NCBI GenBank assembly: GCA_027306605.1
Contig: DAHUZK010000023.1
Span: 1 to 64,000, forward strand
Length of the DNA: 64,000 nucleotides
DNA from: Acidimicrobiaceae bacterium
GTDB taxonomy: Bacteria; Actinomycetota; Acidimicrobiia; Acidimicrobiales; RAAP-2
Reading direction: 5' to 3'
The position numbers and the translations under genes are program-made. Below the pieces are notes generated by a model, which did not search any database, had not been told where the DNA came from, and was given only the letters and a program-made list of their open reading frames with translations. The first letter of the stretch is position 1. Every line of letters begins with the position of its first letter. Positions 31,470 to 36,618 of this stretch are shown here, in pieces.

Positions 31470-32039
31470 CTAGGCGTCTGCGATGCGCCGCAGCGTGTTG
31501 CGGTCGGTGTGGATGACCTCCTCCGCTACCTTGGCGTGCTTGATCACCGTCGTCTCCGAATAGGTGAACTCGTCGTCGACGCTCGTGTCGATCGTTACCT
31601 CGTAGCTCACCGATTGGGCGTTCTTGTCGAGCCAGTTGTTGGCCAGGATCCCGTAGGTCTGGCTGCCCACCCGCGCCGCGAGGGTGAACTTCGTGGCGTC
31701 GGCCGCCACCACCCCACCGGCCACCACGGCCGAACCGCGTGGGATGAGGAAGCACCGCACGACCTCGCTGTCGCGGACGTCCCACATCCAGTAGCCGACC
31801 TCGGTGTGGAAGGGGTTCTCCTCGTCGCGGCGCCAGGCGGCCATGCGGTAGTCGAGCCCGTAGAGCACCTGCGGGCCGTTCTCCACCGGACCGAAGGGCT
31901 TGAAGTCCACGTGCTCGCGGAAGGGAGTCAGGCCGATCTTGCCGGTCTCGTTGGCATAGGCGACGTCCTCGCCCTTCTCGCCCTCCCAGATGCCCGCCAG
32001 GCGGGCCAGTGGTCCCCACTCGGGTCCAGCGCTCAACAT
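31470..32039 (-). CDS. Nitrobindin-like / FABP-like heme-binding beta-barrel protein
   Basis: LARLAGIWEGEKGED... and FHTEVGYWMWDVRDSEVVRCFLIPRG. Confidence 0.75.
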   Translation of the reverse strand: MLSAGPEWGPLARLAGIWEGEKGEDVAYANETGKIGLTPFREHVDFKPFGPVENGPQVLYGLDYRMAAWRRDEENPFHTEVGYWMWDVRDSEVVRCFLIPRGSAVVAGGVVAADATKFTLAARVGSQTYGILANNWLDKNAQSVSYEVTIDTSVDDEFTYSETTVIKHAKVAEEVIHTDRNTLRRIADA

Positions 32040-32185: not shown

Positions 32186-33088
32186 TTAGCGGCCGGATCC
32201 CTCCGCATGGCGCTGCGTGCGGTTCACGATGATCCGAGCGAGCACCAAGAGGATGAGCACGATCACCATCAGGATGAGCGCGGCATCGAAGGCGAGGTAG
32301 TGCGCCTCGTTGGAGGGGTAGTCCCAGAACGTCCACACGGGGTAGGTCAGGTAGCCGATCGGCTGGTGGAAGAGCTGTGCCTTGGGCGTGCCCGTGTACC
32401 AGCCGGCCGTGTAGAGCAGCGGGGCCGTCTCTCCGGCGCTGATGGCGAGCGCGATGAGGAGGCTGGTCACGATGCCCGGGAGGGCCGACTTCAGCACCAC
32501 CTTGCGCAGGCCGTACCCGTTGGGCATGCCGAGCGCCTGCGCCCCCTCCCGGTATGCCGTCGGCACCTGCCGGACCGCCGTCTCCGTCCCTCGGGCGATG
32601 TAGGGGATCACCATGACCGAGAGCACGAGGAGCGCGGCCAGGAGCGAGAAGCCCCAGTGCAGGCCCACCACCAGCGCGAGGTAGCCCACCAGTCCGAGCG
32701 CGATGGAAGGGACGCCCGAGAGCACCTCGGTGGCGCTGCGCAGGAGCCCCCCACGCTCCTTCCCCTTGCGGTTGACCCCGGCCAGCTCGGCCAGGAACAC
32801 GCCCCCGAGCACCCCGAGGGTGCCGGCGATGAGCAGGACGCCCCCCATGAGCACGAGGGTCCCCAAAATGGCGTTCTTCAGGCCTCCGGTGGCTCCCTCG
32901 GTGTTGGTGGTGAGCACGGACCACTGCCAGTGTGGGACCGCCCTGACGATGATGTCGACGATCACCCAGGTGACCGGGACGACGATGATCAACAGGGCCA
33001 GCATCGGGCCGATCCGGGAGAAGGCGATGTTCGCGATCGTCCTCCGGCGTGTGCTGGGATAGGCCGCGCTCGTGGTCGCGCCGTCCAT
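32186..33088 (-). CDS. pstA: Phosphate ABC transporter permease PstA
   Basis: EVLSGVPSIALGLVGYLALV and YREGAQALGMPNGYGLRKVVLKSALPGIVT. Confidence 0.92.
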   Translation of the reverse strand: MDGATTSAAYPSTRRRTIANIAFSRIGPMLALLIIVVPVTWVIVDIIVRAVPHWQWSVLTTNTEGATGGLKNAILGTLVLMGGVLLIAGTLGVLGGVFLAELAGVNRKGKERGGLLRSATEVLSGVPSIALGLVGYLALVVGLHWGFSLLAALLVLSVMVIPYIARGTETAVRQVPTAYREGAQALGMPNGYGLRKVVLKSALPGIVTSLLIALAISAGETAPLLYTAGWYTGTPKAQLFHQPIGYLTYPVWTFWDYPSNEAHYLAFDAALILMVIVLILLVLARIIVNRTQRHAEGSGR

Positions 33089-34173
33089 CAGAGACCGACT
33101 CCGAGTGGTGCCGCATTGCGCCCGGTCCGGCGGACGATGAGTCGCGCGATGAAGTTGACCACGAGGAGCACCACGACGAGGACGATGGCCAGCTCGGCCA
33201 GCGTCTTCACCTCGAACCCGGTGCCGTCGTTGAAGGCGGAGTCGAGCTGGGTCACGAGGGTCGCCGCGATGGTGCCCATCGTCCCGTAGACGTTGGGCGT
33301 GATGGTGTTGAGCAAGGAACCCGAGATCATGGCGACGGCGATGGTCTCGCCCAGCGCCCTTCCCAGCCCGAGGACGGTGGCCCCGATGATCCCCGAGCGC
33401 ACCCAGGGGATCGTGATCTTGCGCCCCACCTCCCAGTCGGTCATGCCGAGCGCCTCACCGCCCTCTTTGGGGAGGGGGGGCACCGTGGCGAAGAGATTTC
33501 GAGTCGTGGCCGTGATGATCGGCACGATCATCAGCGACAGGACGATCCCAGAGGTGAGCAACCCTTCCCCGTGACCGACCGGGTTGCGGAAGTACCGCAG
33601 CACGGGCACGTCGGGCATGTGGTCGGCGATGATCGGGTAGACGTGGTTCGCCAACAGCGGTCCCAGCGTGAGGGCTCCCCACAACCCGATGAGCACGCTG
33701 GGCACCCCGGCCAGGATCTCAATGGCGTAGCGCAGGGTCTCGGCCACGATGCGGGGCAGCCGCTCGGTGAGCGCGAACGCGGCGCCGATGGAGATCGGCA
33801 ACGCGATCACGAGGGCGATGAGCGAAGACTGCAAGGTACCGACGATCACGGGCCAGGCGCCGTAGGACGCGCCGAGTGGATGCGCCACGCCGTGCGTGTA
33901 GACGGTGGCGCCGTAGGCGTTCCCGACGTTCCACGACGAGCGCGTGAGGAAACCTGGTCCGTTCACCTTGGCTGCCGGCCACGCCTTCACGGCGAGGACG
34001 GCGACGATGAGGATCAGGGCGATCAGGGGGACGAAGGCGGCGATCCGGCCGCCCCACGCCCAGATGTGATGCTCGTTCGTCCGCAGCCGTCTCCGGACCC
34101 GCAGGACGAGCGGGTCCGGAGACGGCTGCGCCGCCACGGGTCTCCCCGTGGCGGCGTCACCGACAGCCGTCAC
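33088..34173 (-). CDS. pstC: Phosphate ABC transporter permease PstC
   Basis: EILAGVPSVLIGLWGALTLGPLL, EGGEALGMTDWEVGRKITIPWVRSGIIGATVLGLGRALGETIAV. Confidence 0.93.
   Translation of the reverse strand: MTAVGDAATGRPVAAQPSPDPLVLRVRRRLRTNEHHIWAWGGRIAAFVPLIALILIVAVLAVKAWPAAKVNGPGFLTRSSWNVGNAYGATVYTHGVAHPLGASYGAWPVIVGTLQSSLIALVIALPISIGAAFALTERLPRIVAETLRYAIEILAGVPSVLIGLWGALTLGPLLANHVYPIIADHMPDVPVLRYFRNPVGHGEGLLTSGIVLSLMIVPIITATTRNLFATVPPLPKEGGEALGMTDWEVGRKITIPWVRSGIIGATVLGLGRALGETIAVAMISGSLLNTITPNVYGTMGTIAATLVTQLDSAFNDGTGFEVKTLAELAIVLVVVLLVVNFIARLIVRRTGRNAAPLGVGL
34082..34156 (-). promoter_or_regulatory. Two adjacent strong hairpins at the pstS/pstC junction (within the annotated pstC 5' end)
   Basis: 21-bp perfect arms 34082-34102/34110-34130; 12-bp perfect arms 34129-34140/34145-34156. 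Confidence 0.75.
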
Positions 34174-35295
34174 CTATTGGATCTGCTTGATCTGGTTGAG
34201 CGACTGGTTCAGCAGCTTGGGCGGGAGAGGCTGGAAGCTCACCTGGCTCAGGTACTGGCTGCTGTTGCCGTCGTTCTTGTTGATGGCCCACTCGAGGATC
34301 GAGCGGATCGCTTTGGCGGTCGAGGCGCTCGACTGGTGCGTGTTCACGATGGCGTACTCGTAGTTGATGATCGGGTAGCCGTTCTTGACCGGGCCGTAGA
34401 TCAGAGAGATCGTCCCGCTCGGCGGGGTCTTCTTGAGGAAGTACGCCGCCTCTGCTGCCACGTTCTGCTTCGTCGGCAGGACGAAGTTGCCCTTGCCGTT
34501 CTGCAGGGCACCGTAGAAGAGCCCGTCACCGAGCAGCTGGGACAGGTAGCTGATGCCGACGTACGCGATGCAGCCCACGGTGGCCTTGCAGCCCGAGACC
34601 ATGCCGCCGTTGCCCTGCTCGGCGAGGCCGCCGGGGGTGCTCGGCCACTGGACGGACGTCCCGTAGCTCACCTTGGTGCCCCATCCCGAGGGGTCGGCCT
34701 TGGAGAGGTACTGGGTGAAGATGAAGGTGTCACCGCTGCCGTCGGAGCGGTGGAGCGCCACGATCGGGATGTCCGGGAGGTTGACCCCCTTGTTGTCCGC
34801 CGCGATGGCCGGGTCGTTCCACTTGGTGATCTTGCCCTGGTAGATGGCCGAGAGCACCTTGCCGCTCAGGTTGAGGTGCGCCGTGACGCCGGGGAGGTGG
34901 TAGGCGATGACCTGCACCGAGATGGCCAGCGGGATGTTCTTCAAGGTCGGGTGCGCCTGGACGTCGGACGGGGAGAGGTAGGCGTCGGACGATCCGATGT
35001 CGACCGTGCCGTTGGAGGCATCGGAGATCCCGGTACCCGATCCGGTGCCCGCCGTGGTCAGCGACACCTGGGAGTACTTGGCCGTGTAGGCCGGCTCCCA
35101 GATGTTCCAGAGCGGGTAGAGCAGGGTGCTGCCCGTTTCCGAGAGCGACGCGGTCGGCGGCGTCTCCACCCCGCTCTTGGGGATCTTGACGCTGGCGCCG
35201 GCAGACGTCGCCGCGAGCAGCGAGCTACCGACGGCCATCGTGCCGACGGCCATGAGCAGCGCGAGGAGCCGCGCGGCACCGGAATGACGTTTCAC
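34174..35295 (-). CDS. pstS: Phosphate ABC transporter substrate-binding protein PstS
   Basis: SETGSTLLYPLWNIWEPAYTAKYSQVSLTTAGTGSGTGISDASNGTVDIGSSDAYL. Confidence 0.94.
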   Translation of the reverse strand: MKRHSGAARLLALLMAVGTMAVGSSLLAATSAGASVKIPKSGVETPPTASLSETGSTLLYPLWNIWEPAYTAKYSQVSLTTAGTGSGTGISDASNGTVDIGSSDAYLSPSDVQAHPTLKNIPLAISVQVIAYHLPGVTAHLNLSGKVLSAIYQGKITKWNDPAIAADNKGVNLPDIPIVALHRSDGSGDTFIFTQYLSKADPSGWGTKVSYGTSVQWPSTPGGLAEQGNGGMVSGCKATVGCIAYVGISYLSQLLGDGLFYGALQNGKGNFVLPTKQNVAAEAAYFLKKTPPSGTISLIYGPVKNGYPIINYEYAIVNTHQSSASTAKAIRSILEWAINKNDGNSSQYLSQVSFQPLPPKLLNQSLNQIKQIQ

Positions 35296-35736: not shown

Positions 35737-36618
35737 CTAGCCCATGCGGCCGGTGACGTAACGCTCCGTGTCGGCGTGCTGGGGGTTCGAGAAGATCTGC
35801 TTGGTCGGTCCGTACTCGACCAACTTGCCCTGGTAGAAGAACATGGTGCTGTGCGACACCCGCCTGGCCTGACCGAGATTGTGGGTCACGACGATGAGCG
35901 TCAGTGCCGGTGCCATGGTCTTGAGCAGGGCCTCGATGGATTCGGTCGTGATCGGATCGAGTGACGACGTCGGCTCGTCCAGCAGGAGCACTTCGGGGCC
36001 CACCGCCAAGGCCCGGGCCAGGCACAGCAGCTGCTGCTGTCCACCCGAGAGGCGGAACGGTGAATCGCCGAGACGGTCCTTCACAGCGTCCCACAGCCCG
36101 ACCTCGCTCAGGCGCTGTTCTGCCACGACGTCGAGCTGCTTGCCCTTGGCGATCCGGTGGGCCTTGACTCCCGCCACCACGTTGTCCCGGATCGACATGG
36201 GGAAGGGGTTCGGGCGCTGGAACAGCATCCCGACACGCCGGCGCAACGCCAGAAGGTCGACGTCCGACGCCCAGAGGCTGGAGCCTTCGAGTGTGACGTC
36301 TCCGGTCCTTTGGAAACCCGGGACCCGGTCGTTCATCCTGTTCAACGTGCGCAGAAAGGTCGACTTCCCAGATCCGGTCGGCCCGATGAGCGCGGTGATG
36401 GACCCGCGTCGCAGCGAGACGTTGATGTCGGACAGGACGGTCCGGCCCGAGAAGCCGAGCGCGAGGTCGACAGCCTCCATCACGTGCTCAGGTCGGGCCG
36501 CGTCCGGGTCGAGCGACTTGAGTGCTTCGTCGATTCCGGATCGCATGTCCGCCGTCACGAGGTTGGTGCGAAAGTGGTTGGTCGTCTTGCTTTCGGCCAC
36601 TGAATGGAACGTAGCCAC
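35737..36618 (-). CDS. pstB: Phosphate ABC transporter ATP-binding protein PstB
   Basis: Walker A GPTGSGKST, LNRMNDRVPGF, RVGMLFQRPNPFPMSIRDNV, LSGGQQQLLCLARAL; true start may be Met at 36546. Confidence 0.92.
   Translation of the reverse strand: MATFHSVAESKTTNHFRTNLVTADMRSGIDEALKSLDPDAARPEHVMEAVDLALGFSGRTVLSDINVSLRRGSITALIGPTGSGKSTFLRTLNRMNDRVPGFQRTGDVTLEGSSLWASDVDLLALRRRVGMLFQRPNPFPMSIRDNVVAGVKAHRIAKGKQLDVVAEQRLSEVGLWDAVKDRLGDSPFRLSGGQQQLLCLARALAVGPEVLLLDEPTSSLDPITTESIEALLKTMAPALTLIVVTHNLGQARRVSHSTMFFYQGKLVEYGPTKQIFSNPQHADTERYVTGRMG

What the first reader, a model, noticed from the sequence alone, without database searches (positions are those of the whole stretch)
34082..34156. Two back-to-back near-perfect hairpins exactly at the pstS/pstC junction
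Read directly: CGCAGCCGTCTCCGGACCCGC-aggacga-GCGGGTCCGGAGACGGCTGCG (21-bp perfect arms, 7-nt loop), followed by CGCCGCCACGGG-tctc-CCCGTGGCGGCG (12-bp perfect arms, 4-nt loop). They fall in the first ~30 codons of annotated pstC, whose GTG directly abuts the pstS stop. Inference: an intra-operonic RNA element (partial terminator or processing/stabiliser) that lets pstS be expressed far above pstCA, encoded inside coding sequence or implying a later pstC start.
Basis: partly seen in the sequence, partly recalled or inferred. Interest (0 to 1): 0.78.

Follow-up and report, generated by a model that had tools for sequence, protein, structure and literature searches.

The report
Conserved RNA hairpin inside pstC start
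Just after the gene for the phosphate-binding protein PstS, and inside the start of the next gene pstC, the RNA folds into very strong hairpins that related bacteria keep by matched mutations; they most likely protect the pstS message so that more binding protein than channel protein is made, a known trick seen here in an unusually clear form.

Summary
The 21-bp hairpin is the strongest in 464 kb of the genome. A hairpin of different sequence sits at the same place, a median of 51 nt after the pstS stop, in most relatives. It is the best of about nine compared windows in 58 of 60 close, 39 of 55 intermediate and 13 of 18 distant pst junctions. Stem pairs change together: covariation score 0.742 against 0.231 +/- 0.024 shuffled, and at most 0.183 with partners slid. 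Third codon positions in the arms are about 4.5 times more conserved than in the pstC body. So the RNA structure is under selection. In the family it is truly inside pstC: the frame is kept, and no in-frame start lies between the window's main hairpin and the first transmembrane segment. In other families it lies before pstC. No U-tract follows. Best explanation: a 3'-exonuclease barrier that stabilises pstS mRNA upstream of a poorly initiated pstC; a leaky U-less terminator is the main rival. Same kind as the E. coli/B. subtilis/S. lividans pstS-pstC palindromes and the coding-embedded protective hairpins of E. coli. No RNA data exist here.

The parts
34082..34130 (-). Hairpin B: 21-bp perfect stem (20 bp when hairpin A also forms), 7-nt loop; codons 15-31 of pstC, +44 to +92 after the pstS stop
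34129..34156 (-). Hairpin A: 12-bp perfect stem (11 bp when B forms), 4-nt loop; codons 6-15 of pstC; shared, 15-21 bp long, with the second pst operon of the genome and sister species
34174..35295 (-). pstS, phosphate-binding protein; preceded by a Shine-Dalgarno-like AAGGAG
33088..34173 (-). pstC, phosphate permease; GTG directly abuts the pstS TAG, no Shine-Dalgarno-like motif before it; its first codons encode both hairpins
32186..33088 (-). pstA, second permease of the operon

Best explanation
The hairpins are an RNA element that acts on the 3' end of the pstS message and happens to be translated as the start of pstC. Shown by sequence: RNA-level selection on the stem, a fixed place just beyond reach of a ribosome that stops on pstS, translation of the element within pstC in this family, and no U-tract. 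Inferred: pstSCA is made as one transcript; most ribosomes leave at the pstS stop, because pstC has only an abutting start codon without its own Shine-Dalgarno; the poorly translated pstCA part is cut and eaten from its 3' end; the exonuclease stops at the hairpin; a stable pstS message remains, so much more binding protein than permease is made. Ribosomes that re-initiate on pstC unfold the hairpin and protect the full message for a time.
For: Junction hairpin score median 43 against a mean of 19.7 in gene bodies, best of all windows in 58/60 close, 39/55 intermediate, 13/18 distant relatives. Covariation 0.742 against 0.231 +/- 0.024 shuffled and <= 0.183 slid; 14 of 16 pairs changed on both sides. 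On the PstC tree, stem pairs 4-17 co-change 77 times against 22.6 for wrongly matched columns. Third codon positions in the arms differ in 6.8% against 30.3% in the pstC body, p = 1e-9. The hairpin is inside pstC in 52 and before pstC in 14 classified cases, with at least five switches on the tree, while its place after pstS stays the same (5th-95th percentile +12 to +87): the fixed partner is pstS. TTTT within 12 nt: 1 of 59 close cases. Stems mostly 14-17 bp. pstS has AAGGAG; pstC abuts or nearly abuts the stop and only 11 of 58 have an SD-like motif. Precedents: a 1.1-kb pstS transcript is most abundant in S. lividans, with a -60 kcal/mol stem-loop (PMC2605767); coding-embedded U-less hairpins protect binding-protein messages in E. 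coli (PMC5927463).
Against: No RNA or protein measurement from this organism or order. U-less hairpins may also terminate transcription in GC-rich actinobacteria (PMC8269248). About 40% of intermediate and more than half of distant relatives lack a hairpin of score >= 34 at the junction, so the element is not indispensable.
Confidence: 0.6

Rival explanations
1. A leaky, U-less ('I-shaped') intrinsic terminator: the strong hairpin makes a fraction of RNA polymerases stop after pstS.
For: Stem strength; S. lividans authors propose a terminator at this junction (PMC2605767); in S. clavuligerus many structured transcript ends lack a U-tract and may be I-shaped terminators (PMC8269248).
Against: No U-tract in 58 of 59 close relatives; in the family the element sits inside a translated gene; I-shaped termination is itself poorly established (own knowledge).
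Confidence: 0.25
2. An RNase III site: the double-stranded stem is cut and so separates pstS from pstCA.
For: The window stem is 21 bp and perfect; RNase III acts on pho-regulon RNA in Streptomyces (PMC12096830).
Against: Stems in relatives are mostly 14-17 bp, short of two helical turns; cutting the stem would remove the 3' protection.
Confidence: 0.06
3. A brake on pstC translation: the hairpin slows or drops ribosomes early in pstC, lowering PstC without acting on pstS RNA.
For: It covers codons 6-31 of pstC in the window.
Against: In at least 14 relatives the hairpin is before pstC and not translated, yet lies in the same place relative to pstS.
Confidence: 0.06
4. A chance or assembly product, or a DNA-level palindrome (protein binding site or cruciform).
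For: Perfect inverted repeats can be made by template switching or chimeric assembly (own knowledge).
Against: Independent genomes have unlike sequences that keep pairing; the arms share almost no common motif as a binding site would.
Confidence: 0.03

Closest known systems
pstS-pstC intergenic palindromes of E. coli, B. subtilis and Streptomyces lividans
   Same: Same junction of the same operon, strong stem-loop shortly after the pstS stop; in S. lividans the pstS transcript is the most abundant (PMC2605767).
   Different: There the element is intergenic; here and across the family it is encoded inside pstC, which starts at or very near the pstS stop.
Coding-embedded protective hairpins of differentially decaying E. 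coli operons (Dar and Sorek 2018, PMC5927463)
   Same: Stable hairpin without U-tract, often within coding sequence, downstream of the stabilised gene; ABC binding-protein genes are typical; wobble positions over the structure are conserved.
   Different: Known there from measured decay and 3' ends; here from covariation in an unrelated phylum. Here wobble letters also co-vary across the stem.
malE-malF intercistronic stabiliser (malEFG operon)
   Same: The binding-protein part of the message stays stable while the permease part decays (described in PMC5927463).
   Different: Intergenic repeated REP elements in E. coli (own knowledge); the window element is not a repeat in its genome.
HS-U-lack / I-shaped transcript ends of Streptomyces clavuligerus (PMC8269248)
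   Same: GC-rich hairpins without U-tract in a GC-rich actinobacterium.
   Different: That study looked at intergenic ends and left out 342 ends inside ORFs; mechanism left open.

Membership tests
pstS-pstC junction stem-loop (E. coli/B. subtilis/S. lividans type) | Strong stem-loop directly after the pstS stop in a pst operon | tested here: met
pstS-pstC junction stem-loop (E. coli/B. subtilis/S. lividans type) | Located in the intergenic region | tested here: not met
   No intergenic region: pstC GTG abuts the pstS stop and the hairpins are in its frame; intergenic in at least 14 relatives
pstS-pstC junction stem-loop (E. coli/B. subtilis/S. lividans type) | pstS transcript more abundant than pstCA | not testable with these tools
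   needs RNA-seq or Northern blot
Protective hairpin of differential operon decay | Hairpin significantly more stable than background, downstream of the gene to be protected | tested here: met
Protective hairpin of differential operon decay | No U-tract after the stem | tested here: met
Protective hairpin of differential operon decay | Evolutionary conservation, with wobble positions constrained when in coding sequence | tested here: met
Protective hairpin of differential operon decay | Stable 3' ends at the hairpin and different half-lives on its two sides | not testable with these tools
   needs Term-seq and a rifampicin decay series
Intrinsic (rho-independent) terminator | GC-rich hairpin followed by a U-tract | tested here: not met
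   window continues GACGAACGAGCA; TTTT in 1 of 59 close relatives; none at this site in the consensus scan
Rfam families | Score over the gathering threshold of a curated family | tested here: not met
   only isrG at 14 bits, E 0.13, threshold 100

The most novel reading that the evidence does not exclude
A translation-read switch: because the element lies inside pstC, each ribosome that re-initiates at the abutting pstC start melts the barrier, so the pstS:pstCA ratio is set by re-initiation efficiency and could respond to growth state; the family has written a protein N-terminus and an mRNA-stability element into the same bases and keeps both by wobble-wobble co-variation.
Probability: 0.25. 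Interest if true: 0.6.

Novelty: new member of a known kind. Interest (0 to 1): 0.45.

Why it matters
Binding proteins of ABC transporters are usually needed in excess over the permease, and how one operon gives unequal amounts is a general question. Here an order-wide set of natural variants shows, from sequence alone, that a coding-embedded hairpin is kept at one junction by matched mutations while its letters turn over. It moves between coding and intergenic sequence while keeping its place after pstS, which says which gene it serves. If the mechanism holds, it extends what was measured in E. coli to another phylum, and it is a clean case of one stretch of bases under both protein and RNA constraint.

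Tried and rejected
Dispersed repeat or REP: a whole-genome search finds no further full copy; apart from matches to its own arms, only short partial matches remain, among them the paralogous pst operon. Known RNA family: none. Later pstC start: no in-frame start after hairpin B. One universal codon register as a rule: 52 of 57 close coding cases pair wobble with wobble, but the intermediate set mostly uses another register and the window hairpin B a third, so the register is inherited, not required. The same feature at other permease genes of this genome: a rough look found nothing clearly comparable, but gene boundaries were not modelled. Named relatives by genome contigs: only four close loci, titled as Acidimicrobiaceae (two), Actinobacteria and Actinomycetes MAGs. 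Some substitution counts used pairs with unequal spacing and are superseded. A first MAFFT alignment misplaced one row and was replaced.

Full report
Observation. Both hairpins are present exactly as described. They share two bases, so the folded RNA has 20 + 11 pairs; the segment folds 9 standard deviations below shuffles. The genes are pstS (34174-35295), pstC (33088-34173) and pstA (32186-33088) on the minus strand. In 464 kb of the same genome no hairpin scores higher than the 21-bp one, and the sequence is not a repeat. The genome is an Acidimicrobiaceae-like actinobacterial MAG, judging by its nearest named relatives.

Conservation. I collected pstS-pstC junctions from the same family and order; 133 had both genes placed. 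Each junction was compared with windows of the same length in the pstS and pstC bodies. The best hairpin of the locus is at the junction in 58 of 60 close, 39 of 55 intermediate and 13 of 18 distant loci; median score 43 in the close set against a mean of 19.7 in gene bodies. The second pst operon of the genome has one too.

Selection on pairing. Sequences of the stems are largely unlike one another, but pairing stays. On 22 aligned stems with 16 pairs, 95.7% of cells pair, 14 pairs show changes on both sides, and the covariation score is 0.742 against 0.231 +/- 0.024 in shuffles and at most 0.183 when partners are slid. On a PstC tree, true partners (pairs 4-17) change on the same branch 77 times against 22.6 for wrong partners. 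Eleven close pairs of genomes show 6.8% third-position differences in the arms, 23.8% in the rest of the N-terminal region and 30.3% in the pstC body. The shuffle control does not keep relatedness; the slid control and the tree count do. Stems were picked as the best hairpin of each junction, which favours the unslid register for the share of cells paired, but not the matched changes counted on the tree between relatives.

Coding status. In all 59 close cases with a hairpin the pstC frame is open through it. In the window the only in-frame starts before the first transmembrane segment are at +1 (abutting the stop) and +37; both are upstream of hairpin B, and the second lies in the 3' arm of hairpin A. 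Distances from hairpin centre to that segment differ (49 to 124 nt) yet are equal modulo 3 in 39 of 40, while distances from the pstS stop are not: insertions and deletions keep the pstC frame. The window's hairpin B is the one exception in register. Third positions vary more than second ones in the N-terminal region outside the arms (p = 4e-5). In the aligned set four Arg codons (CGN CGN ... CGN CGN) keep letters 1 and 2 nearly invariant, while the wobble letters of columns 18 and 36 occur as four different Watson-Crick pairs: protein and RNA are both constrained. In other lineages of the order a stop codon in the pstC frame, or the absence of an upstream start, places the hairpin before pstC; the state changed at least five times on the tree, though 38 of 104 cases could be read either way. 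The hairpin keeps its place relative to pstS (median start +51). It therefore most likely serves pstS, and pstC has grown over it, or shrunk off it, several times.

Window details. Hairpin A (AATGxPVAA in the protein) is shared with sister species, where it is 15-21 bp long; hairpin B is weak in those sisters and perfect here. The window thus has two strong hairpins in tandem where sisters have one.

Mechanism. No U-tract follows in 58 of 59 close cases. Stems are mostly 14-17 bp. pstS has a Shine-Dalgarno-like AAGGAG; pstC usually starts on or near the pstS stop without one. This is the layout of a 3' barrier after a strongly translated gene followed by a weakly translated one, as measured in E. 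coli, where such hairpins are often inside coding regions, lack U-tracts and stabilise binding-protein genes (PMC5927463). For the same junction, S. lividans makes mostly a 1.1-kb pstS transcript; its authors propose a terminator or processing, and cite E. coli and B. subtilis palindromes that protect pstS RNA (PMC2605767). U-less hairpins may also terminate in actinobacteria (PMC8269248), so termination stays open at about 0.25.

Verdict. Real, conserved RNA element under selection; the mechanism is inferred. It is a new member of a known kind with an instructive dual-coding layout; the later-start idea is rejected.

Noticed in passing
window 35737-36618 (-): pstB lies upstream of pstS, separated from it by about 440 bases, instead of following pstA; what follows pstA (ORF 31470-32039) does not look like a pst gene.
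   Followed up: no
L031 (G000:C45:22000-30833): The genome has a second pstS-pstC-pstA operon, PstC 77% identical, with its own longer hairpin A (20 bp scored) inside pstC.
   Followed up: partly
G000:C19:32223-32256, C62:90070-90103, C67:32481-32514: Three copies of a similar long GC-rich hairpin (GCGACCCCGGTCCG...CGGGCCGGGGTCGC) in the genome; possibly a small repeat family or similar terminators.
   Followed up: partly
L211, L216, L218, L220, L222 (phylum sample): Strong hairpins directly after the gene upstream of pstC also occur elsewhere in the phylum, while many members of the sample, often with short gaps, have none.
   Followed up: partly
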